Positions 48-25,667 of a DNA stretch of 64,000 nt are shown here, in pieces. This DNA comes from Gemmatimonadaceae bacterium. Its GTDB lineage: Bacteria > Gemmatimonadota > Gemmatimonadetes > Gemmatimonadales > Gemmatimonadaceae. The stretch is taken from contig DATLUQ010000006.1 in the NCBI GenBank assembly GCA_035533015.1, forward strand, positions 1 to 64,000, given 5' to 3'. The notes under the pieces are model-generated. The model worked only from the letters and a program-made list of their open reading frames with translations. It was not told where the DNA came from and searched no databases. Both the position numbers and the translations under genes were made by a program. Position 1 is the stretch's first letter, and each line of letters begins with the position of its first letter.

Positions 48-155
48 GCCTGACTCGGCGCTGCTGCTGGCGGCGTGGGGGGAAGTGGCTGGCGGCCTGC
101 GGCCGCCTGCCGCTATTATGAAAGAACGCCGCCGCAGAGCGCCGCGACGTTAGCC
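48..155 (+). repeat. attC-like recombination site (candidate, site A)
   Basis: An imperfect palindrome of about 108 bp. The left arm starts GCCTGAC (48-54) and runs into GCGCTGCTGC then GGCGGCG. The right arm is its near reverse complement and ends GACGTTAGCC (146-155). The centre holds a smaller GC hairpin (about 91-108) and an AT-rich loop. Integron attC sites have this layout: outer boxes near RYYYAAC and GTTRRRY, long paired arms with extra unpaired bases, and a variable centre. The outer boxes are degenerate here. The right arm closely matches that of the site at 11354-11418. A gene starts 14 bp downstream, as in a cassette. Confidence 0.4.
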
Positions 156-168
156 GAACCATCGGAGC

Positions 169-612
169 TTGATTGAACATCAACTGCCGGTGTCATCGAT
201 GACTTCAGTCGAGCGTTCCTCCGGTCTCTCCCGCGCGATCCGGTGGCGGATCACGCTTGGCCTGATCGTTGCCGGTGCGCTGGCCGGTGCCATGGTCGGC
301 GTGGGCATCACCGTGCTGGGGAAGATCGTGGCGGGGGCGCCGCCCGCCGACGCCGCAAACTACCGGTGGAACGCCACGGTCTTCGGAGTGCTCGGTGCGT
401 GTGTTGGACCGCTGGTGACGTGGTCGGCGCTCCGGCGAGTCCCGCTCTGGCGCACGATCACGGAGCCGCTTGTCGGTGCGTTGGTGGGGGCGGGGATCGG
501 AACGCTGCTGGGTTCGGGCGTGTTATTCCTGCTCCTGACGCCGCTGGGCGCGGGTGCAGCAGTGCTGCGACTCGAGCGCCGGCACCGTGGCCGGGCGCTT
601 CCACCGGGGTAG
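169..612 (+). CDS. small membrane protein, possible integron-cassette gene
   Basis: This encodes a 147-residue hydrophobic protein that I do not recognise. Segments near residues 27-51, 70-90 and 101-128 look like membrane helices rich in Gly and Ala, and the tail is basic. The TTG at 169 is the longest start; an in-frame ATG at 199 (MTSVERSS) is a good alternative, since neither has a strong ribosome site. It begins 14 bp after one attC-like site and ends 17 bp before another, which is the arrangement of a gene cassette. Function unknown; the membrane location is inferred from composition. Confidence 0.55.
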   Translation: MIEHQLPVSSMTSVERSSGLSRAIRWRITLGLIVAGALAGAMVGVGITVLGKIVAGAPPADAANYRWNATVFGVLGACVGPLVTWSALRRVPLWRTITEPLVGALVGAGIGTLLGSGVLFLLLTPLGAGAAVLRLERRHRGRALPPG

Positions 613-628
613 TGCGTAGGCGCGGGCC

Positions 629-715
629 GGCTAACGAGGCACGGCTGCTGGCGGCGGGGGCTTCGGAGGCGGCTTGCTCGCTATGCTCGCATGCCGCAAT
701 CAATACGGGAACTAC
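629..715 (+). repeat. truncated attC-like site (left arm only)
   Basis: It starts GGCTAAC and continues into GCTGCTGGCGGCG, a stretch shared with the left arm of the site at 48-155, and the following 25 bp also align loosely. I cannot find a matching right arm within the usual distance. A weak partner ending GTTAGAG lies at 881-887, which would make the site about 260 bp, longer than normal. I read it as the attC of the preceding membrane-protein cassette with its far half lost or displaced. Confidence 0.3.
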
Positions 716-774
716 AGAAGGGAAACCTTGCTCTGGACACCCCGGCAAACACCAAATGAGACCGACTACCCAAG

Positions 775-885
775 GTGTGCCCTGACGGCGACCTGGTCAG
801 CGAGCCAGATGAGGACTGCGGCTGCAAATCGTGCATGGCCAGAAAGCGAGAGGCCAAAGGGGCGGTCTGCAAGCCATGCCGTTAG
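775..885 (+). CDS. possible 36-residue cysteine-rich micro-ORF
   Basis: A GTG-initiated reading frame encodes about 36 residues with six cysteines: an N-terminal Cys, CGCKSC near residues 15-20, and a CKPC-type pair at the end. An acidic stretch is followed by a basic one, as in small zinc-binding proteins. The TAG stop lies inside the GTTAGAG box at 881-887, so the gene may end inside a recombination site. No ribosome site is obvious and no family is recognised. The rest of the interval from 613 to 1146 shows no convincing gene. Confidence 0.2.
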   Translation: MCPDGDLVSEPDEDCGCKSCMARKREAKGAVCKPCR

Positions 886-1146
886 AGGACACGCAGCTCT
901 GCCGGAGCACGGAGCGAACCAGCCATTCGTCAGCAGCCAAGGCCCTCTCTCGATCAATAGGATCGGACCTCCTCCGTCTGCGAGCGTCGTCCATGCCCAG
1001 GCCGCGATCAGTCCTGAGTTGTGGCCATCCACCTTGCTCTCTGTTCGGTAGAGGATTGCACACTAGCGTTCCGGGCCATGAAGCTGGCCTCCCCTGGGTA
1101 CAGGCGGCATGTGGGCGCCACGCTCGGTGCCCTGTTCAGCGACTCA

Positions 1147-1812
1147 TCAGCCGGCCCGCGAATGGCGGGCGCGATCTGCAAGGCGAAGGACGGGGATCAG
1201 CGCACCCACCTGCCCTTGGTATTCAGCGTAGGGAGAACCGAGAGATTGAACGAGCATCTGGTCCTCAACCTTGATGCGATACGCATAGGCCGCAGAAGTC
1301 GCTACGAGAGACGCTGCAAGAGTCACGATGTTTCCCGAGGCCAATGCAAGTCCATTCAGGCAGAGAAGAGACCCCAGGTAACCGGGATGGCGTACCCCAC
1401 GATACGGTCCCCCGCGCTCGATCGAGTGCTGGTCTTGAACGAGCAGGGTTCTGGTGTAGCGCTCACGTCGTGTGAGGACTGACCACAGCCGAATGCAGAG
1501 ACCGACAGCGCCCAGCGCTATACCAATCCAGGCGACGAGAGGAAGTCCAGGTAGCGCAGCCGGCGGAAACCAGTTGGAGACCCTATGGGAAGTGCCGGGG
1601 GAGATGGCCTTCATGGAGAGGGCAAATCCGAGGACTGGGACGGCGGCCACTGAGACGGCCAGGGTGCTCCTTCGGTCCGAGGCGCCGGTCCGATGGGCGC
1701 GGGCGCGCGCACCAAAGCGGATTTCGGACTGCACGGCGTACAGGAGGAGCACGAAGAGCCCGCCAATCCCGTAAGGCGGTCGTGCGGTGAAGCGTGAGAT
1801 CCATTCAGCCAT
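1147..1812 (-). CDS. isoprenylcysteine carboxyl methyltransferase-like membrane protein
   Basis: The 221-residue protein has about five hydrophobic segments. Its C-terminal half has the signature of the ICMT/PEMT/NnrU group of membrane methyltransferases: GGPYRGVRHPGYLG followed by a membrane span, then an E-x-x-L...YxxY stretch near the end. In characterised members this part binds S-adenosylmethionine and methylates a lipid or prenylated substrate; the substrate here is unknown. I chose the ATG at 1812 because GGAGAG sits just upstream; a longer frame to 1905 lacks a site and would run through the attC-like repeat. It lies 26 bp from that repeat in cassette orientation on the minus strand. 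Confidence 0.75.
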   Translation of the reverse strand: MAEWISRFTARPPYGIGGLFVLLLYAVQSEIRFGARARAHRTGASDRRSTLAVSVAAVPVLGFALSMKAISPGTSHRVSNWFPPAALPGLPLVAWIGIALGAVGLCIRLWSVLTRRERYTRTLLVQDQHSIERGGPYRGVRHPGYLGSLLCLNGLALASGNIVTLAASLVATSAAYAYRIKVEDQMLVQSLGSPYAEYQGQVGALIPVLRLADRARHSRAG

Positions 1813-1838
1813 TCGCTCTCCACGATCGCAACTCAGAC

Positions 1839-1896
1839 GGCTAACGCCGCGGCAGCAGCGTCTTGATGTTTCCACGCAGCTCCGGACGACGTAGCC
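1839..1896 (-). repeat. attC-like recombination site, minus orientation
   Basis: On the minus strand it begins GGCTACGTC and ends CGGCGTTAGCC, 58 bp in all, with arms AGCTGCGT and ACGCTGCTGC that pair imperfectly around an AT-rich centre. The right outer box GTTAGCC is identical to that at 149-155. The methyltransferase-like gene starts 26 bp after the box, in the orientation expected of a cassette. The remaining interval up to 2154 shows no gene. Confidence 0.32.
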
Positions 1897-2154
1897 TCTG
1901 ATCATCCAAGTGATGGAGTTGGAGTCTCGACAACCTCAAGGCAATGCCGGGCAGCGGCGCATTCATGCCCGTGAATGCCGACGCCGGCCAGAGCGCGACG
2001 GTGGCCGTGATGCGCGGTTTCGCTTCGGTCGCCTTGCCCGGCCGGCGAAAGCCGGGGCGCCTCGGCGCGGGGTGGGCGCTGCTCCAGGTTTCGGTCGCGG
2101 TGGGTTGCGGGCAGCTTCCGCCGGCCCTATCGTCCCTCCGCGGCAGGAGGCCGT

Positions 2155-2732
2155 ATGGACCCAGGCTTCGATTCCCTCATGCGGCGCGCCGAGCACGCGG
2201 ATCCGGGCGCGGCAGACGAGCTGTTCGCGCTCCTCTACCGCGAGCTGCATGATCTTGCCGAGCGCAACCTGCGGCGCGCCGGCGCTCCGCCCACGCTGGG
2301 CCCCACCACGCTGCTGCACGAGGCCTACCTCAACATCGCAGAGCGCGGCGGCGTGGCCTTCCCCGATCGCGGCCGGTTCCTGGCCTACGCATCGCGCGCC
2401 ATGCGTGGGTTGGTGATCGACTATGCCCGGCGGCGCCGGGCGCGAAAACGGGGACGCGAACTCGAAATAACGTTGACCGACGAGATCGGGTCGGCGGCCG
2501 GCACGCTGGCGGACGCAGACGAATTGCAGCGACTCGGCGACGCGCTGGACGAGCTGGCCATCCTCGAGCCGGCGTTGGCGGAACTCGTGGACATGCATTT
2601 CTTCAGCGGGTTCGCATTCGCCGAGATCGCCGGCGTTCGCGGCGTTTCCGAGCGCACGGTGCAGCGCGACTGGCGCAAGGCCCGGCTGCTGCTGCATCGC
2701 ACGCTGCTCGACGGGGACGACGTGGCCGTCGT

Positions 2733-2736
<4 letters not shown>
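2155..2736 (+). CDS. ECF-type RNA polymerase sigma factor
   Basis: The 193-residue protein belongs to the sigma-70/ECF class commonly encoded beside Ser/Thr kinases (TIGR02999-like). Region 2 is seen around residues 75-105 (FLAYASRAMRGLVIDYARRR). Region 4, with its helix-turn-helix, lies around residues 155-185 (FAEIAGVRGVSERTVQRDWR). No membrane segment or anti-sigma partner is apparent. It converges with the kinase gene, and the two stop codons share the four bases CTAG. I infer that the kinase controls or is controlled by this sigma factor, as proposed for such pairs, but nothing here proves it. Confidence 0.88.
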
Positions 2737-5351
<2,615 letters not shown>

Positions 5352-5544
5352 GAGCAGCGGGATGGAATCGCCCAAGCATAGGGCGTCTGCGGAGTTCCGC
5401 AACCGGCGGGGCCGGATTCGGGTGGCGTGTCGGGTTCGGCGGGCGAATTGCGATCTAAGAGGTGAAGGGCTCGCGGCAGCGGCGACGGGGCGGGGCGGCC
5501 CGCCGCCGCATGGCGCGCGAAGAGGAACCGCACCGGAGGTGGCG

Positions 5545-6924
5545 ATGGACCGCAGAAGCACGAGAACGATTGCCGCGGCGCTGGTCGCCGCACTGGCGGC
5601 GTGCGATGCGCCGCGCCCGGTTGCACCCGCGGCGCCGCCGATTGCCGCGTCACGCGATCGCGATGGCGGGGATGCCGACACGCTGGCGCGCACCGTGCGC
5701 TTGCTGGCTGCGGCGCGCGGCATCGTGCCGCTCCCGCAGCCGCCGCGAATTCCGCCGGCGCTGGTGCGTCTGGGTCGCGCACTCGCGTTCGATCGCATCC
5801 TGAGCGGGAATCGTGACATCGCCTGCATGACCTGCCACGCCGCGTCGTACGCGACCGGCGACGGGAAGAGCCTGTCCATCGGACAGGGTGGCGTCGGGCT
5901 GGGCCCGACGCGCTATCACCCGAAGGGAATCTTCATTCCGCGCAACGCGCCCCCGCTGTTCAACCTGTTCGGGATGAAGCATCTGTTCTGGGATGGGCGC
6001 GTGGAGGTGGACAGCCAGGGGCACCTCCACACGCCGGCCGGGGCGCAACTCACGCCGCAAATGGCGCGCGTACTCCGGTACGGTCCGGTGTCGGCGATCG
6101 GGATGTTTCCGGTGACGGTGCGCGCCGAGATGCGCGGCGACGGCGGCAACGAGTTGGCGGCGCTGGGCGACGACGACTACACCGGTATCTGGAACGGGCT
6201 CATGAAGCGACTCGGCCGGATTCCCGAATACCGCGCGATGTTCGAGGCCGCGTATCCGGGCGAGCGGTTCGACCGGATGAACTTCGCGTACGCGTCGAAC
6301 GCCATCGGCGCCTTCATCGTGGATCAGTTGACGCTCGAGGATACGCCGTGGGATGGATTTCTCGCCGGGCACGACGACGCGCTCAGCCCGCGGCAGCTCC
6401 AGGGGGCAGAGACGTTCCTCACACTCAAGTGCTCGCTGTGCCACAACGGTGCGACGCTCAGCGATCAGCAGTTCCATGACGTGGCCGTGGCGCAGATCGG
6501 ACCGGGCGAGGGGGACGGCGTCGGCGGGCACGACGACTTCGGCCGGTTTCGCGTGACGCACAACCAGGACGACCTGTACCGCTTCCGGACCACGCCGCTG
6601 CGGAACGTGGAACTCACCGGCCCGTACGGGCACGACGGCGCCATCGTGGATCTGCGCAGCTTCATCGCGCACTACAGTGAGTCGGACGTGAAGCTCACCT
6701 CGTACGATCCCAGCCAGCTCGAGCCGCTGCTCCGGAATACCCTGGTGCAGAATGAGAGCCAGGTGATTGCGGCACGGGACACACTGATCCTGGGGGTCGT
6801 GCTCACGGACGACTTGGTGAGCAAGCTCGTGGACTACATGAGCGCGCTCACCGATCCGCGGGCCGCCCATCTCGACCGGCTGGCGCCGGTACGGGTGCCG
6901 AGTGGGCTGCCGGTGGATCGGTAG
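5545..6924 (+). CDS. di-haem cytochrome c peroxidase/MauG-family lipoprotein
   Basis: This 459-residue protein has a lipoprotein signal ending at Cys20. It has two haem c sites, CMTCH (residues 94-98) and CSLCH (296-300), placed as in bacterial di-haem peroxidases, and the family motif LFNLFG...FWDGR near 138-152. Known relatives reduce hydrogen peroxide with electrons from small cytochromes, or like MauG oxidise a protein substrate; sequence alone does not decide. The start follows a clear GGAGG. The gene is divergent from the kinase, with about 190 bp between that must hold both promoters. It is most likely exported and anchored in a membrane. Confidence 0.88.
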   Translation: MDRRSTRTIAAALVAALAACDAPRPVAPAAPPIAASRDRDGGDADTLARTVRLLAAARGIVPLPQPPRIPPALVRLGRALAFDRILSGNRDIACMTCHAASYATGDGKSLSIGQGGVGLGPTRYHPKGIFIPRNAPPLFNLFGMKHLFWDGRVEVDSQGHLHTPAGAQLTPQMARVLRYGPVSAIGMFPVTVRAEMRGDGGNELAALGDDDYTGIWNGLMKRLGRIPEYRAMFEAAYPGERFDRMNFAYASNAIGAFIVDQLTLEDTPWDGFLAGHDDALSPRQLQGAETFLTLKCSLCHNGATLSDQQFHDVAVAQIGPGEGDGVGGHDDFGRFRVTHNQDDLYRFRTTPLRNVELTGPYGHDGAIVDLRSFIAHYSESDVKLTSYDPSQLEPLLRNTLVQNESQVIAARDTLILGVVLTDDLVSKLVDYMSALTDPRAAHLDRLAPVRVPSGLPVDR

Positions 6925-7075
6925 CGAGACGCGGCGGGAGACGGGCAGGACGGGCGCAGCCGGCGAGCCAGGCCCGCCGGCCACGGGGTTGCTCCCGCGG
7001 CCGGCGCCTTGGCCCGCAGTTCGGAGCGGTTAGCGGCTGCCTCGGAGGTTCCTCCCGGATTTCTCGGAGCGGGCG

Positions 7076-7285
7076 CTACGGCCAATCCAGCCAGTCGGTC
7101 ACGTCGAACGCCTGAGAAAGCTGGACCGCCAGTGCATGGCCCCCGGGGCGAACGAAGGAGCAATTCGCCGGGTTCACTTGCCACTGGTCCCAGCGATACG
7201 ACGCCTTCACGATCGTCGACGCCGAGACGCGGTACCCGAACCCGGCTTCGGTGTCGCGACAGTCGGCGAGCCTAGCGACGTCGTA
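7076..7285 (-). pseudogene. 3' fragment of an outer-membrane beta-barrel (porin-like) gene
   Basis: On the minus strand, from just after a TGA at 7286-7288 to a TAG at 7076-7078, runs a 69-residue open frame with clear protein character. It has alternating polar and aromatic residues (ASYRWDQWQV, FVRPGGHALAVQL) and ends in AFDVTDWLDWP, as in the last strands of a barrel. No start codon or ribosome site precedes it. The same frame upstream of the stop still reads plausibly (RVLVRLPQIRRA), which suggests a nonsense mutation in a decayed gene. Apart from this, 6925-7560 shows no convincing gene. Confidence 0.45.
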
Positions 7286-7560
7286 TCACGCGCGCCGAAT
7301 CTGTGGAAGGCGCACGAGGACGCGCCGCCCCGAGGGCCGATGGCAAACGAGGGCCGTGTCGTCCCGGATCGGGAACGTGTGGGGCAACGGCCACGCGCCA
7401 CCCGCCCCACCACAACGCTCAACGGCATCACTCGTCAGCGTCGGATCCGGTCCCCGGTGAAACACGCCGGGCGCTGGCGGCCGTGGAACCGAAATCAGAA
7501 GGCGCGAGTACGTCGTCAGGGCCCCGTGATGCTGGTTCTCCCAACCCGGAGCATGGACCA

Positions 7561-7959
7561 ATGCGAACAGGTACCGCCATGCTTGCCACCCTTGGTGTCG
7601 TCCTCGGCATCGGCTGCTCGAGCGGCGCGCCGACCGGCCCGCACAACCTCAAGGCCGACCTCCCCGGCGTCTGGGCACAATCGTTCCCCTTGCCGGCCGG
7701 GTCCTCTCGCGTGTTGTCGCTGTCCGTCCAGGATACGACCGTGACGGGCACGGGCACGTACACTGCCGAGGCCATGCAGGGCGGCACGCTCACCGTGGCG
7801 GGATTCATCACTGGCCCCTACGTCAACTTCGACATCACGGAGAGCCCAGGGGGCGTGTACCACTTCACCGGCCAATTGGCCGGAACTGACACGCTCGCCG
7901 GCAGCCTGTGGACGACCTCCGACCCGGTGCCGGTGACGTTCGCCCGCGTGTCGCGGTAA
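7561..7959 (+). CDS. putative small lipoprotein
   Basis: The 132-residue protein has a short signal with lipobox LGIGCSS, so Cys19 is the likely lipidated residue. The mature part looks like an all-beta domain of repeated strands and turns with polar Thr/Gly content (SVQDTTVTGTGTYTA, GGTLTVAGFITGPYVNFD), resembling small lipocalin-like lipoproteins seen elsewhere in this window. The ATG follows CGGAGC at a suitable distance; the frame is open further upstream but without a site. Neighbours suggest no specific role, and I do not recognise the family. Confidence 0.7.
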   Translation: MRTGTAMLATLGVVLGIGCSSGAPTGPHNLKADLPGVWAQSFPLPAGSSRVLSLSVQDTTVTGTGTYTAEAMQGGTLTVAGFITGPYVNFDITESPGGVYHFTGQLAGTDTLAGSLWTTSDPVPVTFARVSR

Positions 7960-8140
7960 CCTGATGCGCCCGCGACCTGGAGCCCGACAAATCCCTTACA
8001 TGCCCGCCACGGACTTCCGGGAACGCGAATCGCCGACCGCGCATTCACATGACGTTGCCCCGGACTCGCCGGAGTACGCACAGTCGTCTGCCTCCGCGAC
8101 AGCGCAACGCTGTATGCCCCTACCGCTCGGTGAGTGACGC

Positions 8141-8710
8141 ATGTTGATGGCCGTTTCAGCTCTGGCATTGATGTTGGCCGCCTCGCCGCCGGATACGACT
8201 CCCGCCGCGGGGCACAACGTACCAGACTCGATTCCCCGATCGATCGTGGACACCGTGCACCGGCGTCCGCGCGCTGTCGAGGTGAGTGATGCCTACTATA
8301 CCCGTCTGCAGATCCATCAGTGGTCAGCGTATTCCATCATTCCGCTGTTTGCCTTCCAGTATGTCGCTGGGAACCGCCTCTTCAACGATCCGGCGGCCGC
8401 TCCCACGTGGGCCAAGACCGGACACCGTGTGGGCGCGACCTTGCTGGCCACGGCATTCACCGTAAGCACGGTCACCGGACTCTGGAACCTCTGGGATTCG
8501 CGCAGCGTTCCGGAGAACAGAGCACTGCGTTACGTGCACGCGCTGTCGATGCTCGCCGCCGACGGGGCCTTCACCTACGCGGGCTCGACCCTGGCCACGC
8601 AGGCTCAGAACAGCCTCGCCAAGCGGCGAGAACATCGCACCGTGACTCTGGCGGCGATGGGCGTGACGTTGGCCAGTGCCCTCATGATGAAGATCTGGAA
8701 TGCCCATTGA
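8141..8710 (+). CDS. four-helix membrane protein with one His per helix, possible b-type cytochrome
   Basis: The 189-residue protein has a hydrophobic N-terminus (signal peptide or first helix), then four hydrophobic segments at about 58-77, 94-113, 130-152 and 166-187. Each carries one histidine near an end: His59, His95, His133 and His165. This even spacing resembles four-helix membrane cytochromes that ligate one or two haems by His pairs, although I recognise no named family. Its last 11 bases overlap a Rieske gene, and a second Rieske gene follows, so a haem-bearing membrane anchor that exchanges electrons with them is a reasonable inference. Haem binding is not shown by sequence alone. 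Confidence 0.7.
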   Translation: MLMAVSALALMLAASPPDTTPAAGHNVPDSIPRSIVDTVHRRPRAVEVSDAYYTRLQIHQWSAYSIIPLFAFQYVAGNRLFNDPAAAPTWAKTGHRVGATLLATAFTVSTVTGLWNLWDSRSVPENRALRYVHALSMLAADGAFTYAGSTLATQAQNSLAKRREHRTVTLAAMGVTLASALMMKIWNAH

Positions 8711-9245
8711 CCGCCGCGCAACGCCCGACGCTGCGGAGGATTCCCGGCACGCCCAGTGCGCCGCCTGCGTGCTGGGCGGACGCCGGCGCTTCATACGCGA
8801 TCTCGCCGTGGTAGCGGCCGGAACGCTGCTCGCGCTCGGCGCCGCGCCGGCTGAGGCCGCCGCCGGCGAGTGGCGATTCGTGCGCGCCGGCCGGACCCGA
8901 GGTGAGACCAAGGAGTATCCCATCCCGCCCAGCGACGGGGTGAACATCGACAACGACGAGTCGGTGATCGTCGCCCGCTACCAGGGCGCGGTCTACGCGT
9001 TCTCCCTCGCTTGCCCGCACCAGAACACGGCCCTCCGCTGGGAGGCCGACGAACACGAGTTCCGCTGCCCCAAGCATCACTCGGAATACACGCCGACGGG
9101 TGAGTTCATCGATGGGCGCGCAACGCGCGGGATGGATCGGTTCGCCGTCACCCGCGATGGAAACAACGTCGCGGTCAATCTGGACGCGTTGTTCCGCCAG
9201 GACGACGACCCGGACGCGTGGAAGAAGGCATTCGTCTCGGTTTGA
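8700..9245 (+). CDS. Tat-exported Rieske [2Fe-2S] protein, ferredoxin-like type
   Basis: The 181-residue protein begins with a twin-arginine signal (RRRFIRDLAVVAAGTLLAL, about residues 28-46). The Rieske domain follows, with cluster ligands in ACPHQN and RCPKHHSEY, the CxH...CxxH pattern. It lacks the two extra disulfide cysteines of cytochrome bc-type Rieske proteins, so a lower-potential centre is likely. The start overlaps the end of the membrane-protein gene by 11 bases, indicating coupled expression. It probably lies in the periplasm, perhaps held by the uncleaved Tat helix. Confidence 0.85.
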   Translation: MPIDRRATPDAAEDSRHAQCAACVLGGRRRFIRDLAVVAAGTLLALGAAPAEAAAGEWRFVRAGRTRGETKEYPIPPSDGVNIDNDESVIVARYQGAVYAFSLACPHQNTALRWEADEHEFRCPKHHSEYTPTGEFIDGRATRGMDRFAVTRDGNNVAVNLDALFRQDDDPDAWKKAFVSV

Positions 9246-9283
9246 CGACGCGGTGCGCCGCGCGCCGCACTTCCGGAGGAACG

Positions 9284-9733
9284 ATGGCTTTGAGCGACTG
9301 CATCAATCGTCGTGAGTTTCTAATCACCTCGGCCGCGGCGACGGCGGGAGCGCTGGTGATCACCGGCTGCGGCAACGGCCAGTTCGGGCCGACCGGCGTG
9401 AACGACGCCGGTCCCGGCGGCATTCCGACCGACGGCCCGAAGCTGATCACGGTCGGTGATTTTCCCGACCTCGCGACCACCGGGCGCCTCGTGCAGGTCG
9501 CCGACCTCCGGGCCGCTAAGCGGCTCACGGCCACGACCTTCGCCGCGTACTCGCTGATCTGCACGCACCAGCAGTGCGCCGCCGGCGTGCAGAGCGGGAC
9601 GCAGATCGTCTGTCCCTGCCACGGCTCCCGGTTCGACGCCAGCGGCAACGTCGTGAACGGACCCGCCACGCGGCCCCTGGCCACCCTCAACACGAGTTAC
9701 GACCCGGCCACCGGCATCCTGACGGTGCAGTAG
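9284..9733 (+). CDS. Tat-exported Rieske [2Fe-2S] protein, cytochrome bc-like type
   Basis: The 149-residue protein has a Tat motif (NRREFLITSAAA) and a possible lipobox (VITGC). Its Rieske motifs are CTHQQC and CPCHGSRFD, which carry the additional cysteines that form a disulfide in bc1/b6f proteins and raise the potential. The ATG follows GGAGGA by three bases. The gene lies 38 bp after the previous Rieske gene on the same strand. Two Rieske proteins of different kinds next to a His-rich membrane protein suggest a small electron-transfer chain; its donor and acceptor are unknown. Confidence 0.87.
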   Translation: MALSDCINRREFLITSAAATAGALVITGCGNGQFGPTGVNDAGPGGIPTDGPKLITVGDFPDLATTGRLVQVADLRAAKRLTATTFAAYSLICTHQQCAAGVQSGTQIVCPCHGSRFDASGNVVNGPATRPLATLNTSYDPATGILTVQ

Positions 9734-9789
9734 CACGCGGACCGACGGCCGGCGCGCCCCACATGGGGCGGCGCCGGTCGTTGCGTGCT
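9732..9789. terminator. long hairpin between convergent genes
   Basis: Outer arms AGCACGC and GCGTGCT flank inner arms CCGGCGCGCCCC and GGGGCGGCGCCGG around the loop ACAT. The inner pairing has one bulged base. There is no T tract. Placed between the stop codons of the second Rieske gene and the convergent DUF4142 gene, it probably ends transcription from both sides. Confidence 0.5.
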
Positions 9790-9792
9790 CCG

Positions 9793-10344
9793 CTACTCGC
9801 CTTGCCGGTCGAGCAGACGCTGAGCCGCCTTCAGGTGCGCGTCGAACGCCGGCACGACTTCCTTCACGAGGCTCTTCAACTCCTCGTTCTGGATCGCCGG
9901 GAGGAACGTCCCGTTGAGCGCGTCGATTACCGCGCGGTGATACGCCACCTCGTGCTCCAGGAACGCGCGATCGAATGCTTTGCCCTGCGCCGCTTCCAGG
10001 GTCTTCATCGCCGCCGCATGATCCGCGGCCATCGCGAAATCCTTGGGCGGGGTGGGCGTGACGGCGAGCTTCTTCGCCAGATCGCGTCCCATCTGCCGGA
10101 CCTTGGTGTGGTCGCGCTCGAGCATCGCGCCGAAATCACGAATCTCCTTCGTCGTCCCCTTCTTCGCCGCGAGCGCGCCGGTCTGCATGTCCCAGGTATT
10201 TGCCGCGTCGAAAATTGCCACGATCGTGGGGTCGTCCAGCCCGGCCCCTGGCGTCTGCGCCCGTACCGGGCGCGCCGTCGCGCTCATGGTCAGCATCCCC
10301 GCCGTCGCCAGCATGACCGCGTGCCGCATCGCTCCCTGCTGCAT
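9793..10344 (-). CDS. DUF4142 family exported protein
   Basis: The 183-residue protein has a Sec signal (residues about 1-27, ending ATARPVRAQ). A four-helix, ferritin-like domain of the DUF4142 type follows, with paired His residues: FGAMLERDHTKV near 70-81, HAAAMKTLEAAQGKAFD and HEVAYHRAVID. Members are common exported proteins in soil bacteria; some are linked to stress, but no reaction is established. The ATG at 10344 follows GGGAGG. It is divergent from the Cys-rich regulator gene, and the shared 195 bp interval contains an AT-rich inverted repeat. Confidence 0.85.
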   Translation of the reverse strand: MQQGAMRHAVMLATAGMLTMSATARPVRAQTPGAGLDDPTIVAIFDAANTWDMQTGALAAKKGTTKEIRDFGAMLERDHTKVRQMGRDLAKKLAVTPTPPKDFAMAADHAAAMKTLEAAQGKAFDRAFLEHEVAYHRAVIDALNGTFLPAIQNEELKSLVKEVVPAFDAHLKAAQRLLDRQGE

Positions 10345-10435
10345 ACCGACCTCCCGTATCAGATTGTCCGATGTCCCCGGGGCCGAGGCGCCCCGCGGGA
10401 TCCCGCCACACGTCGCGGAACGTAGGCCCCGCTCC

Positions 10436-10467
10436 ATAATTTGTCCAGTTTTATCTGTACTTATTTG
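10436..10467. promoter_or_regulatory. AT-rich imperfect inverted repeat, candidate operator
   Basis: ATAATTTGTCCAG and CTGTACTTATTTG are imperfect inverted arms separated by six bases (TTTTAT). This is the only AT-rich stretch in a GC-rich intergenic region between the DUF4142 gene and the divergent Fe-S regulator gene. Its position suits an operator or promoter serving one or both genes; autoregulation by the adjacent regulator is inference. Confidence 0.4.
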
Positions 10468-10539
10468 CCTTTTGCGCGCGTCCGTCCTATTCTTGCACCC
10501 TGGGACATCCGCCCGCGTCGGGCCACCCGGAGCCAAGTC

Positions 10540-11193
10540 ATGCCCGCATCACTACCGGGAAGCCGGCGGTTCTTCGAGAGCACGCGCGGTCGAGTCGTCG
10601 AGCGGCTCCGCCGCGGCGCGTGTACGGTCGAAGCGCTCGCCGATGAACTGGAGTTGACCGACAACGCCGTGCGTGGGCATCTCGCCACGCTCGAACGCGA
10701 CGGCATGGTACGCGCCGCCGGCGTCCGGCGCGACGGCGGTGTGGGGAAGCCCGCCACGATTTACGAGTTGGCGCCCGAAGCCGAAGCCGCGATGTCGCGC
10801 GCCTACGTTCCCATGGTCCGGGCGCTGCTCGGCGCCCTGGCCCACCGATCGTCCCCGCGTCAACTCCGGGCCGTGTTCCGTGACGCCGGGCGGCGCCTGG
10901 CGCACGGCGGACCTCCCGCGGCCGGCGGGCTTCGCGCCAGAGTGGAGGTCGCGGCCGCCGCGCTCACCGAGCTCGGCGGGCTGCTCTCGGTAGAACCGAG
11001 CGACGCCGGCTACCGAATCGTCGCCTGCGGGTGCCCGCTCTCGGAGGCCGTGGTCCAGCAGCCGGAGGTCTGCACGGCCGTGGAGACGATGCTCGCCGAG
11101 CTCACCGGGGCCGCGGTGCACCAGCAGTGCGAACACGGTGCGCGGCCCCAGTGTCGATTCGAGGTGTCGGCGTCGCGACCCGCCGGTCGCTGA
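10540..11193 (+). CDS. winged-helix transcriptional regulator with four-cysteine (Fe-S-like) domain
   Basis: The 217-residue protein carries an N-terminal helix-turn-helix (TVEALADELELTDNAVRGHLATL, about 28-50) and the wing RRDGGVGKPATIYEL. The C-terminal part has cysteines spaced as C-x12-C-x18-C-x7-C, beginning in ACGCPL. This resembles the COG2345/SufR group, whose members bind an iron-sulfur cluster and repress Fe-S assembly or stress genes. The cluster is inferred from the cysteines. The ATG at 10540 was chosen as the first after the AT-rich operator-like region. Likely targets are itself and the divergent gene. Confidence 0.83.
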   Translation: MPASLPGSRRFFESTRGRVVERLRRGACTVEALADELELTDNAVRGHLATLERDGMVRAAGVRRDGGVGKPATIYELAPEAEAAMSRAYVPMVRALLGALAHRSSPRQLRAVFRDAGRRLAHGGPPAAGGLRARVEVAAAALTELGGLLSVEPSDAGYRIVACGCPLSEAVVQQPEVCTAVETMLAELTGAAVHQQCEHGARPQCRFEVSASRPAGR

Positions 11194-11353
11194 TCCACCG
11201 TGTCCCCGGGGCGCGGCCTCCCGTTCACGGTACGTTTCCGCTGTTCGCTTTGCTCCGGGAGATGCGGAGTTCCGTTCAAGTGGCATGATCCGGGCGCCGG
11301 CGATTGCCAACGTGCCCGAAGAGATCGCGGATCAGGCATCGTCCCGGCGTGGC

Positions 11354-11418
11354 GTCCAACGACGCGCTGCTGCCGCCATTGTGAAGAAACGCCGCAGCAG
11401 AGCGCTGGGACGTTGAGC
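11354..11418 (+). repeat. attC-like recombination site (best candidate, site B)
   Basis: This 65 bp site starts GTCCAAC and ends GTTGAGC, both fitting the attC outer-box consensus RYYYAAC and GTTRRRY. Left inner arm GCGCTGCTGC pairs with right arm GCAGCAGAGCGC, leaving two unpaired bases, a hallmark of attC hairpins. The loop is ATTGTGAAGAAAC. Its right arm matches that of the site at 48-155 over about 35 bp despite different surrounding genes. A DUF1801 gene starts 100 bp downstream. I see no integrase gene in the window. Confidence 0.52.
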
Positions 11419-11517
11419 CGGCAGTCGAGAACTAGCGGCGGGGTTGCTGCGAGAGCGCGGCATCGTGTGAGTGCCTCGTGCGCCGCCTGATAATATGCGA
11501 AGCCAGGGAGGGGTGAA

Positions 11518-11904
11518 GTGAACGCTCGCAGTTTACCACCGAAAAGCATCGACGCGTACATTGCCGCCGCACCCATCGAAGTCCGGCCAATACTGAAGAG
11601 AATACGACGCACCGTGGCGGCCGCCGCGCCGGAAGCGAAGGAGATCGTCAGCTACCGCATGCCGGCGTTCCGGCTGCACGGCATCCTCCTGTACATCGGC
11701 GCCTTCAAACACCACATCGGACTCTTCCCCCCGGTCACGGGCGACGCGAAGCTCGCGAAGGCCCTGGCACCATACGCCGGCCCCAAAGGCAATCTCAGGT
11801 TCCCGCTGGATCAGCCCATTCCCTATGCGCTCATCAGGCGCATCGTCCTGTTACGGGTCAAGCAGGACCGCGCTCGAGCCGCCGCGAGGCGGAAGAGGGC
11901 ATAG
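11518..11904 (+). CDS. DUF1801 family protein (YdhG-like)
   Basis: The 128-residue protein shows the DUF1801/YdhG pattern: IDAYIAAAPIEVRPILKRIRRTV, EIVSYRMPAFRLHGILLYIGAFKHHIGLFP and the KGNLRFPLDQPIP stretch. It is a small alpha/beta fold, cytoplasmic, with no known activity. The GTG at 11518 follows AGGGAGGGG. The tail is basic. It lies 100 bp downstream of the best attC-like site, so it may have arrived as a cassette. Two other DUF1801 genes occur within 8 kb. Confidence 0.82.
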   Translation: MNARSLPPKSIDAYIAAAPIEVRPILKRIRRTVAAAAPEAKEIVSYRMPAFRLHGILLYIGAFKHHIGLFPPVTGDAKLAKALAPYAGPKGNLRFPLDQPIPYALIRRIVLLRVKQDRARAAARRKRA

Positions 11905-11990
11905 TGAGAGCCGAGCGCCGACGGACTTGTGAGCGGGGCTTCCCATCTGCCGTGCTGATCGGGACGCGCCGCCGCTGATGACGTGGCGGC

Positions 11991-15883: not shown

Positions 15884-17339
15884 GGTTCAACTGGTCGTCG
15901 CAACAGGTGGGGTGCCGGCGGATTGTAGCAGTTCGGCGAGGGCTTCGGCAGGGGTCCGCCAGCCAAGGGTCTTCCGTGGGCGCGTATTGAGCGTCAGCGC
16001 CACGGCAGCCAGCGTCGATGCGCTGTGGGCACTGAGATCGGTGCCTTTCGGAAAGTACTGCCGGAGCAGCCCATTCGTGTTCTCGTTTGTGGCCCGTTGC
16101 CACGGACTGCGCGGATCGCAGAAGTAGATGGCGAGGTCGGTGGCGAGCCGGAGTTGGATGTGCTCGGCCATCTCGGCGCCTTGGTCCCAGGTCAAGGAGC
16201 GTCGCAGTGCCACCGGCAAGGTGCGGATCGTCCGCGTGATCGCGTCGCGGACGGCGGTTGCGCCGTGTCCGGCCAGCGCCGGCCCGTTCTTTTCCCGTAA
16301 CCCGCGCCCGTGGCCCGCCATCGGCGGCAAATGGAGCAAGAGGGTGAAGCGTGTCGTCCGCTCCACGAGTGTGCCAATGGCCGAACTCTGAAGGCCGAGG
16401 ATCAAATCGCCTTCCCAGTGCCCGGGCACGGCCCGATCGGCGACTTCCGGTGGCCGCTCGCCGATCATGACGTCGGTGCTAATGAAGCCTTTGCCTCGAC
16501 GGCGGCCCCGGGCTCGCGGTACGCGCAGCGCCCGCCCGGTGCGCAGGCAGGCGGTGAGCTCCCGGCGGAGCGCGCCCCGTCCTTGCACGTACAGCGCCTG
16601 GTAAATGGCCTCGTGGCTGATACGCATGGTCGGATCGTCCGGGAACTCGAGCGGAAGCCGATGCGCAATTTGCTCCGGGCTCCAGGCCCGGCCCCAGCGG
16701 CGATGCTGGCGACGGCCACGTCCTCGGCCCGTCCACGACACGGTGGGGCCACGCACCGGCGCGCCGTCGGGCGTGGCGATCATCCCGGCTAAGCGCTCCT
16801 GCACATACTGCCGTAATTGCGGGTGCACCGCCAGCTTCGCGACTTTCGGTCGCTGCGCGGCCCGGTCGGCGTGCCACTGCGCGGTGGTGGCCCGGTAGTC
16901 GAGCGTCCCGCTACGCGTCGCCGCATTCCGGCGGAGCTCGCGCGAGATCGTCGAGGGCGCGCGGCCTAATTGCCGGGCGCACGTGCGCACGCCATGACCC
17001 TGGGCCCGCAGCACGGCCAAGGACTCGCGCTCAGCAAACGAGAGATAGCGATCGGAAAGCGGGGGCGCCGAGGGCGCCAAGTGGGAAGGCGGCATCCCGC
17101 CAGCTTGCCGAAACCAGCGCGTGCCCACCACCCAGGACACGCGGGCGTCGGCGACCGCGGTCCCGGGATAGTGCCCGCGGGCAATGGCGGCCCAGAACCG
17201 CCGCCGGTCCTCCCGGCGTCCAACGGGTGGTCGTCCCGGCGAGCGCAACTTCCGTCGTCCCGAACGATCTGAACGCCGTCGCGTCGGTTTCGTCATCACA
17301 ACCTCCTCTACGAGGGTGTTGCAACGACCGATTGAATCC
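15884..17339 (-). mobile_element. IS30-family insertion sequence, apparently complete
   Basis: About 1.46 kb carrying a single transposase gene. Imperfect terminal inverted repeats are visible: TTCAACTGGTCGTCGCAACA at 15886-15905 and its counterpart TGTTGCAACGACCGATTGAA at 17317-17336, which pair at 18 of 20 positions. Exact ends and the short target duplication cannot be fixed by eye. The transposase stop codon lies inside the left repeat. The element separates the DUF1697 gene from an attC-like arm at 17399. Confidence 0.88.
15887..17296 (-). CDS. IS30-family transposase
   Basis: The 469-residue protein has an N-terminal basic extension, a helix-turn-helix (LSFAERESLAVLRAQG... APSTISRELRRN, about 85-125) and a DDE integrase core. 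Catalytic candidates are Asp in GHWEGDLI, Asp in LTWDQGAEM and Glu in TNENTNGLLRQYFPKG, all intact. The ATG at 17296 follows GAGGAGG by five bases; a longer frame to 17341 would extend through the right inverted repeat. The reading frame is undamaged, so the element may still be active. Confidence 0.9.
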   Translation of the reverse strand: MTKPTRRRSDRSGRRKLRSPGRPPVGRREDRRRFWAAIARGHYPGTAVADARVSWVVGTRWFRQAGGMPPSHLAPSAPPLSDRYLSFAERESLAVLRAQGHGVRTCARQLGRAPSTISRELRRNAATRSGTLDYRATTAQWHADRAAQRPKVAKLAVHPQLRQYVQERLAGMIATPDGAPVRGPTVSWTGRGRGRRQHRRWGRAWSPEQIAHRLPLEFPDDPTMRISHEAIYQALYVQGRGALRRELTACLRTGRALRVPRARGRRRGKGFISTDVMIGERPPEVADRAVPGHWEGDLILGLQSSAIGTLVERTTRFTLLLHLPPMAGHGRGLREKNGPALAGHGATAVRDAITRTIRTLPVALRRSLTWDQGAEMAEHIQLRLATDLAIYFCDPRSPWQRATNENTNGLLRQYFPKGTDLSAHSASTLAAVALTLNTRPRKTLGWRTPAEALAELLQSAGTPPVATTS

Positions 17340-17398
17340 ACCCCCCATGGGTCGTTTCAAGTGATGCTCCGAGACCGTTGGTGTTTCGCGCGAGTGCT

Positions 17399-17434
17399 GC
17401 CCAACATGCGCTGCCACTGACGGGCGCGTTAGAG
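17399..17434 (+). repeat. attC-arm-like sequence
   Basis: It begins GCCCAAC, a perfect attC outer-box match, continues ATGCGCTGCCACTGACGGG, and has GTTAGAG at 17428-17434. The two ends do not pair well, so this may be one arm of a site rather than a full one. The core ATGCGCTGCCACTGA recurs at 26846-26860 after an unrelated small gene. It lies 60 bp beyond the IS30 right end. The interval 17340-17556 holds no gene. Confidence 0.25.
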
Positions 17435-17556
17435 ATTGCGCGAGCTGCGCTCGCGGTCTCGTTTGATTTGCCCGCACCTGAGCTGGGGCGTCAGCCCGAC
17501 TACCGGATCCCGTTCACGCGTTGCGACCTCACCGAAAATCGACTACCGTGGCGCCG

Positions 17557-17874
17557 ATGCCAACTCGTAACGGCCGTTCCGCTCGCTCCGTCGAGCCCGC
17601 CGCGAACGCGAAGTCGTCCAAGTTGCCGAGCGCCGGGGAACGTGTGCCCCGGAAGGCCCGCAAACCCGCAATGCTGCCCAAGTCCGATGGGGACGCCGGC
17701 GTGCGGCCCTACATCGCGAGCATGGAGGCGAGGCAGGCCGCCATCGCCAACCGCGTCGACGCGCTCGTCGTGAAGCACGTGCCGGGCGTCCACAAGGCCA
17801 TGAGGTGGCACTGCCCATTCTACGGCGTCGAGGGGCAGGGCTGGTTCCTCGCCTTCCCTGGTTGGGCGGCATGA
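17557..17874 (+). CDS. truncated DUF1801 family protein
   Basis: The 105-residue product has a Lys/Arg/Ala-rich N-terminus of about 45 residues and then a DUF1801 domain start: GVRPYIASMEARQAAIANRVD, GVHKAMRWHCPFYGVEGQGWFLAFP. It stops where relatives normally continue with a further ~50 residues, so the domain is cut at its 3' end. Its TGA overlaps the ATG of the AraC-type gene (ATGA). I infer that a deletion fused the remnant to the regulator's start. It may be non-functional. Confidence 0.6.
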   Translation: MPTRNGRSARSVEPAANAKSSKLPSAGERVPRKARKPAMLPKSDGDAGVRPYIASMEARQAAIANRVDALVVKHVPGVHKAMRWHCPFYGVEGQGWFLAFPGWAA

Positions 17875-18335
17875 GCGAAGGTCTGGCAAGCCAGGACCCC
17901 GAACTGTTGCGCCGCCTGCTGCGCGCGAAGGACCGGATGGACGCCGCCTCGCACGAGGACTGGCCCGTGGGGCGGCTGGCGCGCGTGAGCGGCGTGTCCG
18001 CGGCCCATTTCGCGCGATCGTTCAAACAGGCCTTCGGCACGCCGCCGCACCGGTACCTGCTCACGCGGCGCATCGAGCGGGCGACGGCGCTGCTCCGCGA
18101 CACCGACCTTTCCATCACCGAGATCGCCTTCGAGACAGGCTGGCAGAGCCTGGGCACGTTCGGCCGCACGTTCCGCGACGTCGCCGGCCAGAGCCCAAGC
18201 GCCGTCCGTGCGCGCGCCAAGGCTTCGGCGCGCGGGCTCGACCGCGTGCCGGCGTGCATCGTCAGCGCCGCGCACCGGCCCCACCTCACGATGGCAGTTT
18301 CGGAGAAGCGGCGCCGAGTGCGGAGCGCTAAATAA
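17871..18335 (+). CDS. AraC-family transcriptional regulator (DNA-binding domain only)
   Basis: The 154-residue protein consists mostly of an AraC/XylS double helix-turn-helix. The first HTH is WPVGRLARVSGVSAAHFARSF (about 35-55) and the second is ITEIAFETGWQSLGTFGRTF with the family signature. No ligand-binding domain is present; the C-terminal ~40 residues are basic. Such short AraC proteins often sit beside VOC or DUF1801 genes, as here. The start overlaps the preceding stop (ATGA), so translation is probably coupled. Confidence 0.85.
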   Translation: MSEGLASQDPELLRRLLRAKDRMDAASHEDWPVGRLARVSGVSAAHFARSFKQAFGTPPHRYLLTRRIERATALLRDTDLSITEIAFETGWQSLGTFGRTFRDVAGQSPSAVRARAKASARGLDRVPACIVSAAHRPHLTMAVSEKRRRVRSAK

Positions 18336-18361
18336 ACGGGTCCAGACGACAAGGAGATCCG

Positions 18362-18769
18362 ATGACGCAGGGCGTGGACGTGGCCGGTCTGTACGTGCGG
18401 GATCAGGACGAGGCGCTGGAGTTCTACGTGGGGAAGCTCGGGTTCCGCGTCCATACGGACGTGAAGAACGGTGATTATCGCTGGCTCACGGTGCAGCACC
18501 CGGACCAGCCGTCGTTCCAGCTCGGCCTGTTCGTGCCGGGCCCGCCGGTGCACGATGCGGCCACGGCGCAGACGCTGCGCGCGGTCGTGGCCAAAGGCGC
18601 GATGCCGCCGCTGGTGCTGGTGGTGGACGACTGCCGCGCTGCCTGCGACCGGATGCGCGAGCGGGGGGTGGAGTTCACGCAGGAGCCCGTGGCCCGCTAC
18701 GGCACCGTGGACGCCGGGTTCCGCGACCCGTCGGGGAACGGGTGGAAGCTGATCGAGGCGCGCCGCTGA
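18362..18769 (+). CDS. VOC superfamily protein (glyoxalase/bleomycin resistance-like)
   Basis: The 135-residue protein is one VOC domain pair: VAGLYVRDQDEALEFYVGKLGFRV at the N-terminus and FRDPSGNGWKLIEARR at the C-terminus, where Glu is the usual metal ligand. The first ligand position, normally His or similar, is Gly/Leu here, so metal binding is uncertain. Strong site AAGGAGATCCG precedes the ATG. It lies 26 bp after the AraC gene and 10 bp before a DUF1801 gene, forming a likely small operon. Confidence 0.85.
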   Translation: MTQGVDVAGLYVRDQDEALEFYVGKLGFRVHTDVKNGDYRWLTVQHPDQPSFQLGLFVPGPPVHDAATAQTLRAVVAKGAMPPLVLVVDDCRAACDRMRERGVEFTQEPVARYGTVDAGFRDPSGNGWKLIEARR

Positions 18770-18779
18770 GGCAGGGAAG

Positions 18780-19178
18780 ATGAAGAAGACTCCATCGAAG
18801 AACGCAGAATCTCCGTCCGCGCGCATCGACGCGCGAATCGCGGAGTTGGACGACTGGCGGGGCGAGATGCTCTCGCGGATCCGCGCCCTGATCAGGGAGG
18901 CGGATCCCGACGTGACCGAGGAGTGGAAGTGGAGAGGGGTGCCGGTGTGGTATCACGATGGGATGATCTGCACCGGCGAGACGTATAAGAGTGTCGTGAA
19001 GATGACCTTCGCCAGGGGCGCCTCCCTGAAGGACCCTTCGGGCCTGTTCAATTCCAGTCTCGACGGCAACGTCAGGCGAGCCATCGACGTCCACGAAGGC
19101 GACCAGCTGGACGAGAAGGCGCTCAAGGCGCTCGTTCGGGCCGCCGTGGCCTTGAACAAGTCCGGAGCCCACGGCTAG
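18780..19178 (+). CDS. DUF1801 family protein
   Basis: The 132-residue protein has ARIDARIAELDDWRGEMLSRIRALIREADPDVTEEWKWRGVPVW, then YKSVVKMTFARGASLKDPSGLFN and DEKALKALVRAAV, the complete pattern of a DUF1801 protein. It is cytoplasmic with no known activity. It follows the VOC gene by 10 bp, with GCAGGGAAG before the ATG. Intact length contrasts with the truncated relative at 17557-17874, which has lost exactly this C-terminal part. Confidence 0.85.
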   Translation: MKKTPSKNAESPSARIDARIAELDDWRGEMLSRIRALIREADPDVTEEWKWRGVPVWYHDGMICTGETYKSVVKMTFARGASLKDPSGLFNSSLDGNVRRAIDVHEGDQLDEKALKALVRAAVALNKSGAHG

Positions 19179-19215
19179 TGTGAGAAGGGGCCCGCCCCCC
19201 TTGCGTGACCGTCCT

Positions 19216-19245
19216 TTGCATGATAAAGTCCTCTGTGTGTAGATA
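19216..19245 (+). promoter_or_regulatory. candidate sigma-70-type promoter for the DUF4173 gene
   Basis: TTGCAT (19216-19221) and TAGATA (19240-19245) are spaced by 18 bp in a locally AT-rich stretch. The GTG start at 19257 would leave a leader of only a few bases; the ATG at 19281 would leave about 30. Confidence 0.4.
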
Positions 19246-19256
19246 ACAGAGGGTCC

Positions 19257-20849
19257 GTGAATCCCCCCGATTCAGCGCCGATGACCGCCGCCGCTACGTC
19301 CGACCGCATCGCCCGACGCGCCCTGCTCGCGGCCGCGCTCCTTGGCGTGCTCGCCGACCCGCTCCTCCGCAACGGACCATGGGGCCTCGGGCTCCTGGTC
19401 TGGATGTCGGCATTCGCCGCCGCCGTCGTCGCGCTCGCGCGCCGGAGCGCTCGGTCGCTCTCGCGCGAGAGCGCCATCTGGCTCACGGTTGCGGTCCTCT
19501 TCGCCGCGGGCCTGTCGTGGCGAGACGCCGACGTGCTCCAGCCATTCGACGTGCTGGCCATGCTCGCCGCGCTCGTCCTGCTCGCAATGAGCATGGGTGC
19601 CGTCCCCGTTCCCGGCCTCGCCCTCGCTCGCGTCCGCGATCTGATCGGCGCCGCGTTCGGAACGGGGCTCGAGGTGGCCACCGGCGTCGTGCCGCTTGTC
19701 GCGCGCGACGCGGGGTTCCACGCCGCGCCCCAGACGGCGACCGACGGGCGCGCCCGGCGCATCGCCAGGGCCGTGCTGATCACGGTTCCCATCATCGTCG
19801 TCTTCGCGCTGCTGCTCACGCACGCCGACCCGGTGTTCGCGTCGTTCCTCGCCATTCCCAATGTGGACCTCGCAGTCGTGTTCTCGCACGTCGTGGTCGC
19901 CGGCTTCTTCGCGTGGGTGGTGGCCGGCTGGCTGCGCCGGGCGCTCATCACGCGCCGCGCGCAGAACGGCGCGCCGGCCGCGCCACCGCCGCTCGCCCTC
20001 GGCCCCACTGACGTGACGCTCGCGCTCGGCGCCCTGAACGTGCTGTTCGCGGCGTTCGTGGTGGTGCAGATCGGTTGGTTGTTCGGCGGCCAGGCGCTCG
20101 TGCTGAAGACCACCGGCCTCAGCTACGCCGAGTACGCCCGGCGCGGCTTTGCCGAGTTGACGGGGGTGGCGGGCCTGTTGCTCCCGGTGCTGCTCGGCGC
20201 GCAGGCGCTCATTCCGGCTTCGGACGTCCGCACGCACCGGGTCTACCGGCGGCTCGCGGTTCCGCTGGTGGTGCTGCTCGGCGCCATCATGCTTTCCGCC
20301 GGCGCCCGCATGAAGTTGTACATCCACTACTACGGCATCTCCACCGACCGGCTGTACGCCTCGGCGTTCATGATCTGGCTGGCGATGGTGTTCGTGTGGC
20401 TCGCGTTCACCGTGCTGCGTTCCCGCCCACGCACCTTTGCCGCGGGGCTGGTGGCCACCGGATTCGCCGCGCTGTTCACGCTCAACGTCATCAACCCCGA
20501 TGCGCTGGTGGCCCGGGCGAACCTAGCGCGCGGTGACGCCGCGCAGACCGTCACGGGGGGTCCGGATCTGCGGTACGTCGCATCGCTGGGCGGAGACGCG
20601 GTGCCGATGGTGGTGTCCGCGTTGACGGCGGGACAGTTCGCCGCCGACTCGGCCGCCCAGAGCGACCGCTGCGCCGCGGCCAAGATCGTGCTCGACCGAT
20701 GGACGGGGGAGCGGCGTGCACGGATGTCCAGCAGCTGGACGCAGTGGAACGTGGCGCGGAGCCGAGCGACGCAGGCCGTCCGGGCGCATCAGGCGGAGCT
20801 GGAAGCGCTCGCCTGTCGCCCGAACGGCGCCGGTCCAACGCCTCGCTAA
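19257..20849 (+). CDS. DUF4173 family multi-pass membrane protein
   Basis: The 530-residue protein has about ten hydrophobic helices between residues 20 and 430, then a soluble C-terminal region of about 100 residues. The stretch around AGARMKLYIHYYGISTDRLYASAFMIWLAMVFVWLAFTVLR is typical of DUF4173/DUF4153 proteins; the following NVINPDALVARANLARG also fits. Function is unknown. The GTG at 19257 is the longest start, with an in-frame ATG at 19281. It converges with the aminopeptidase gene, and the stop codons share the bases CTAA. Confidence 0.83.
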   Translation: MNPPDSAPMTAAATSDRIARRALLAAALLGVLADPLLRNGPWGLGLLVWMSAFAAAVVALARRSARSLSRESAIWLTVAVLFAAGLSWRDADVLQPFDVLAMLAALVLLAMSMGAVPVPGLALARVRDLIGAAFGTGLEVATGVVPLVARDAGFHAAPQTATDGRARRIARAVLITVPIIVVFALLLTHADPVFASFLAIPNVDLAVVFSHVVVAGFFAWVVAGWLRRALITRRAQNGAPAAPPPLALGPTDVTLALGALNVLFAAFVVVQIGWLFGGQALVLKTTGLSYAEYARRGFAELTGVAGLLLPVLLGAQALIPASDVRTHRVYRRLAVPLVVLLGAIMLSAGARMKLYIHYYGISTDRLYASAFMIWLAMVFVWLAFTVLRSRPRTFAAGLVATGFAALFTLNVINPDALVARANLARGDAAQTVTGGPDLRYVASLGGDAVPMVVSALTAGQFAADSAAQSDRCAAAKIVLDRWTGERRARMSSSWTQWNVARSRATQAVRAHQAELEALACRPNGAGPTPR

Positions 20850-23269: not shown

Positions 23270-23306
23270 GGACGGAGACTCCGAAAGTTACGAGTCGAAC
23301 AGATAA

Positions 23307-25667
<2,361 letters not shown>

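What the first reader, a model, noticed from the sequence alone, without database searches (positions are those of the whole stretch)
48..11418. Homologous attC-like sites at unrelated loci, no integrase visible
Sites at 48-155 and 11354-11418 share a right arm of about 35 bp (loop GAA-rich, then CGCCGC, AGAGCGC and GACGTT) yet lie 11 kb apart beside different genes. The second also has outer boxes GTCCAAC and GTTGAGC that both fit the attC consensus, with paired inner arms GCGCTGCTGC and GCAGCAGAGCGC containing two unpaired bases. That is seen in the sequence. Integron attC sites are known for exactly this structure. The inference is a decayed cassette array without integrase (CALIN) in this genome.
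Basis: partly seen in the sequence, partly recalled or inferred. Interest (0 to 1): 0.72.

Follow-up and report, generated by a model that had tools for sequence, protein, structure and literature searches.

The report
Scattered attC sites of a chromosomal integron
The two repeats are genuine integron recombination sites (attC), but the genome is not integrase-free: a full-length integron integrase with its cassette array sits at the broken end of another contig, so this is an ordinary, partly decayed chromosomal integron of a Gemmatimonadaceae bacterium.

Summary
Sites 48-155 and 11354-11418 share an 84% identical 45-nt right arm, and a covariance model built only from other genomes scores both far above background (52.2 and 36.0 bits). 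The model adds a third site at 17399-17496; a truncated one lies at about 630-700. The attC reading is supported, with strong covariation and extrahelical bases on the expected arm. The CALIN reading is not. The window is the edge of contig C6 of a 66-contig draft genome, and the same genome carries a full-length intI on contig C28, followed by an attC, a cassette and a second attC cut by the contig end. Lone sites 11354 and 17399 lie at the edges of the interval where a congener holds an attI-like region and three attC sites, so they look like relics of an older array. intI points the same way as the cassettes in all 15 scorable loci of the order; on an IntI tree this trait needs one change. 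That matches the known 'inverted integrase' arrangement. Verdict: new member of a known kind. Whether C28 and C6 join is unproven.

The parts
48..155 (+). attC site (R'' GCCTGAC, R' GTTAGCC, one change from consensus in each box); cassette gene to its left is cut by the contig end
   Evidence: Hold-out model R2 52.2 bits, E 3.9e-13; genome-wide E 1.9e-11; bottom strand folds with two single bulges on the 3' arm, z -4.6
169..612 (+). 147-aa ORF in cassette position between a complete and a truncated attC
   Evidence: ORF list; no Pfam or NCBIfam family
631..700 (+). Truncated attC: left arm and terminal stem kept, right arm (L', R') missing
   Evidence: 84% identity over 70 nt to the C28 attC, E 1e-17; not found by the models
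11354..11418 (+). Lone attC site with short terminal loop; both outer boxes fit the consensus (GTCCAAC, GTTGAGC)
   Evidence: R2 36.0 bits, E 2.7e-8 in the window, 1.3e-6 genome-wide
11518..11904 (+). DUF1801 gene next to the lone attC; left anchor of the interval that holds the array in congener G003
   Evidence: Pfam PF08818 E 3.5e-12; 84% DNA identity to G003 C47 over 430 nt
15887..17341 (-). IS30 family transposase ending 58 bp from the attC at 17399
   Evidence: NCBIfam NF033563 E 5.8e-72
17399..17496 (+). Third attC site, not in the finding; R'' GCCCAAC fits, R' GTCAGCC has lost GTT
   Evidence: R2 43.8 bits, E 1.2e-10; R1 41.9 bits; not in either training set
17521..25343 (.). Flank conserved in congener G003, where it lies on the far side of the attC array
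   Evidence: About 90% identity to L085 1-8398 in blocks

Best explanation
The window starts at the broken edge of one contig of a Gemmatimonadaceae draft genome that owns a complete chromosomal integron. IntI is encoded on contig C28 and transcribed towards its array. As in other integrons, IntI would recognise the bottom strand of each attC folded as a hairpin with extrahelical bases and join it to attI or another attC, so that circular gene cassettes are inserted and excised (mechanism taken from the family, not tested here). Site 48-155, its neighbouring cassette and the truncated site at 631-700 are an array segment with a damaged end, perhaps the far part of the C28 array (inferred). The lone sites 11354 and 17399 are relics of an older array at the locus where congener G003 still carries an attI-like stretch and three attC sites (inferred from synteny).
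For: Full-length intI on C28, 409.5 bits, aligned end to end with Vibrio IntI 2A3V, E 1.3e-80; attC, cassette ORF and cut second attC after it. Contig C28 belongs to this lineage: its fhs gene is 88% identical to that of G003. Hold-out attC model finds the three window sites. Covariation: 94.4% of cells paired, 14 of 24 pairs with changes on both sides, lost on sliding. Relatives carry arrays of the same site type beside intI. G003 array lies between the homologues of window 11498-11920 and 17521-25343.
Against: No read or contig joins C28 to C6. The lone sites have no second complete site within 4 kb. The fold of 48-155 is as stable on the top as on the bottom strand (-38.8 against -35.2 kcal/mol), so energy alone does not pick the strand. 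Recombination was not tested.
Confidence: 0.85

Rival explanations
1. Lone sites 11354 and 17399 are single cassettes that the C28 IntI inserted off-target at secondary GTT sites, not relics of an array.
For: Off-target insertion by an IntI elsewhere in the genome is a proposed origin of integrase-free attC sites (PMC8618304), and IntI1 uses GTT secondary sites (PMC10127599). The site at 17399 resembles those of other family members more than the C28 type.
Against: Both sites lie at the edges of the interval that holds the array in G003, which chance insertion would not predict. No empty site was found in congeners.
Confidence: 0.2
2. A real CALIN: the window sites belong to clusters that have no integrase in this organism.
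For: No intI in the window; decayed boxes and a truncated site. The IntI and its contig could in principle be a binning error (contamination 1.1%).
Against: intI and attC of the same sequence type on C28, fhs of C28 88% identical to the congener.
Confidence: 0.07
3. A REP or MITE-like repeat family that mimics attC.
For: Imperfect palindromes repeated at several unrelated loci.
Against: In the order, sites sit beside intI in 15 of 15 loci scored, always in one orientation; covariation with fixed extrahelical positions; only seven sites in 3.03 Mb above background with the hold-out model; the model also finds sites beside IntI of Proteobacteria.
Confidence: 0.01

Closest known systems
Sedentary chromosomal integrons; integrons are on record for the phylum Gemmatimonadota (PMC8618304)
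   Same: intI, attI-like region, attC sites of one sequence type, promoter-poor small ORFs as cassettes
   Different: Few sites (about eight in this draft genome) and scattered over several contigs; size of the array unknown because of contig breaks
Integrons with same-direction intI, as in Treponema (PMC3607928) and the 'inverted integrase group' (PMC10500605)
   Same: intI is transcribed towards attI and in the direction of the cassettes
   Different: Different phylum; attC sequence type of its own; relation to the Treponema IntI was not tested here
CALIN (cluster of attC sites lacking integron-integrase)
   Same: attC sites without intI on the same contig
   Different: intI present in the genome; complete sites in the window are not clustered; a contig edge lies beside the first one

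Membership tests
attC site | Outer boxes RYYYAAC and GTTRRRY | tested here: met
   Fully met by 11354-11418; one change in each box at 48-155; R' lost GTT at 17399-17496
attC site | Conserved paired arms with structure kept by compensatory changes | tested here: met
   25 sites, 14 of 24 pairs with both sides changed, covariation score 0.369 against 0.123 shuffled
attC site | Extrahelical bases on the 3' arm of the folded bottom strand | tested here: met
   Two single bulges on that arm in 48-155, C28 and G003 sites; for 11354-11418 the minimum-energy fold shows internal loops instead, so that site alone is inconclusive
attC site | Bottom strand is recombined by IntI | not testable with these tools
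   Needs a recombination assay
Complete integron (genome level) | IntI with its specific insert, next to attC sites | tested here: met
   C28 intI over cut-off, insert aligned to 2A3V, attC 500 bp downstream
Complete integron (genome level) | attI site | tested here: inconclusive
   A stretch after intI is 60% identical over 184 nt to the one before the G003 array (E 3.5e-9); function not shown
CALIN | At least two clustered attC sites | tested here: not met
   Complete sites at 48, 11354 and 17399 are 6 to 11 kb apart; only the 48-155 site has a second, truncated one nearby
CALIN | No integron-integrase associated with the cluster | tested here: inconclusive
   No intI on C6, but the first site lies at a contig end and intI lies at the end of C28
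REP / MITE | Dispersed repeat in both orientations without link to integrase or cassettes | tested here: not met
   Link to intI and one orientation in 15 of 15 loci

The most novel reading that the evidence does not exclude
Same-direction intI is a stable trait of one IntI lineage shared by Gemmatimonadota, Acidobacteriota, Rokubacteria and Krumholzibacteriota, and in this genus the integron platform has changed chromosomal position at least once, leaving attC scars at the old locus (window 11354 and 17399).
Probability: 0.3. Interest if true: 0.42.

Novelty: new member of a known kind. Interest (0 to 1): 0.3.

Why it matters
It shows how a draft assembly can make an ordinary integron look like integrase-free attC sites, and it gives a working attC model for a little-described phylum. 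36 of 60 sampled relatives carry intI, so this order is a sizeable cassette reservoir with the less common integrase orientation.

Tried and rejected
Rfam scan of the window: no family at gathering score. Pfam PF22022 did not detect IntI although intI is present; TIGR02249 did. The C39 hit does not score with the models and was dropped as chance; C51:30511 (E 0.13) drops out with the hold-out model. C30:2958 is strong only with the model that included it (R1 1.6e-5, R2 0.11), so it is a probable, decayed site. I first read the three DUF1801 genes (the only ones in the genome) as cassette cargo; synteny shows that the one at 18861 is part of the conserved flank, so their closeness to attC may only mean that the old array lay beside DUF1801 genes. 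I first took congener G003 as a true CALIN; its fhs contig ends inside fhs, just before the place of intI, so this cannot be said. No empty site for 11354 was found. IntegronFinder and HattCI were not available; own models took their place.

Full report
What was checked. The ungapped match is 107-151 with 11370-11414, 84% over 45 nt. A strict box-and-stem scan of my own finds one site in the window (11354-11418) against a mean of 0.06 per random window of the same dinucleotide make-up; 11 of 200 random windows had one.

Where the window lies. It is bases 1-64000 of contig C6 (73,887 bp) in a genome of 3.03 Mb, 66 contigs, 95% complete. The window thus starts at a contig end. The closest named IntI relatives are Gemmatimonadaceae genomes, 67% and 64% identical, so the host is very likely of that family.

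The integrase exists. TIGR02249 finds one full-length integron integrase, C28:108080-109018, 409.5 bits against a cut-off of 265. The 336-aa protein aligns over almost its whole length with the Vibrio integron integrase 2A3V (E 1.3e-80), including the insert typical of IntI and the C-terminal motifs. After intI come about 500 bp, an attC (C28:109513-109623), a 94-aa cassette ORF without known family, and the left arm of a second attC that runs into the contig end at 109,988. The array was therefore cut in assembly inside a repeated attC. The IntegronFinder 2 paper describes this source of false CALINs (PMC9024848). C28 is not a stray contig: its fhs gene next to intI is 88% identical to that of congener G003.

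The sites are attC. Two covariance models were built on bottom strands: R1 with sites of this genome, R2 without any. R2 in the window: 48-155 52.2 bits, 17399-17496 43.8 bits, 11354-11418 36.0 bits, next best E 0.85. R2 over the genome: seven sites with E below 1e-5 (one on C28, two on C53, three on C6, one on C19), then E 0.11. On 25 sites, 94.4% of cells are standard pairs and 14 of 24 pairs have changes on both sides; sliding the partner by one to three columns destroys the signal. Single bulges fall on the 3' arm of the bottom strand in the 48-155, C28 and G003 sites, the polarity that directs strand choice in known attC sites (PMC2727003). R2 also finds sites beside intI in 28 of 80 named loci, most of them from other groups, which serves as an outside positive control.

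State of the window sites. 11354-11418 fits both box consensuses. 48-155 has one change in each box. 17399-17496 has lost GTT in R'. The site at 631-700 keeps its left arm and terminal stem (84% identity to C28 over 70 nt) and has lost the right arm. Between 155 and 631 is a 147-aa ORF in cassette position.

Locus history. Congener G003 holds an attI-like stretch (60% over 184 nt, E 3.5e-9) and three good attC sites on contig C47. Its flanks match window 17521-25343 (about 90%) on one side and the DUF1801 gene at window 11498-11920 (84%) on the other. The lone window sites 11354 and 17399 thus lie at the edges of the interval that holds the congener's array. In the window that interval holds an esterase-like gene, other genes and an IS30 transposase whose start is 58 bp from attC 17399. 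The simplest reading is a lost array with scars; off-target insertion of single cassettes remains possible. G003 lacks a detectable intI, but its fhs contig stops inside fhs, so it cannot be called a CALIN.

Orientation. In all 15 loci of this order (own genome included) where the R1 model finds attC beside intI, the array lies downstream of the 3' end of intI and in the same direction. Among the 80 named loci, seven show the same arrangement (Gemmatimonadaceae, Acidobacteria, Rokubacteria, Krumholzibacteriota) and 21 the divergent one, mainly Proteobacteria (L102 has one further site in the other direction). On an IntI tree of 42 proteins the trait needs one change, support 99/97. Same-direction intI is known from Treponema (PMC3607928), and an 'inverted integrase group' is named in a review (PMC10500605). 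The named loci were chosen by similarity to this IntI, so the sample is not even, and the root of the tree is unknown.

What is shown and what is inferred. Shown: attC identity by model and covariation, presence of intI with cassette and attC, the contig break, synteny with G003, orientation counts. Inferred: recombination activity, continuity of C28 and C6, relic status of the lone sites, IS30 as a possible agent of loss.

Verdict. A real feature of an ordinary kind: a Gemmatimonadaceae chromosomal integron with scattered, partly decayed attC sites. The integrase-free reading fails at the genome level.

Noticed in passing
window 17521-17874 (compare L085 7949-8398): DUF1801-like gene at the edge of the old array is shortened in this genome: about 155 bp present in congener G003 are missing near window 17860, so the frame ends early.
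   Followed up: partly
L098 9437-9637 (contig C53:17436-17636): Two attC sites 9 bp apart and facing opposite ways; the second loses its R' box at what looks like the end of an IS3-like element. Their sequence type resembles other family members more than this genus.
   Followed up: partly
L014 8855-10180 (contig C19): An antitoxin-like HTH gene and a small RelE/HigB-like ORF precede a lone attC, and a GNAT-like ORF follows it (read by eye; NCBIfam gave no family for the latter).
   Followed up: no
L014 9517-9588, L085 9421-9492, L098 9177-9232: A stretch of about 60-70 nt (CATGGGAGGAGC...CAGGCTGGAGGGCCAGCCCG) is shared by three places near attC sites in two genomes, 84-94% identical. Its nature is unknown.
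   Followed up: no
Relatives in the order, e.g. G033 and G008: Several genomes carry two to four intI matches, some partial and some with an internal stop.
   Followed up: no
window 2155-5879: Likely sigma-factor gene (2155-2736, +) next to a large Ser/Thr kinase-like gene (2733-5879, -) in tail-to-tail order, similar to G023 C38 at 67% DNA identity; assignment by eye.
   Followed up: no
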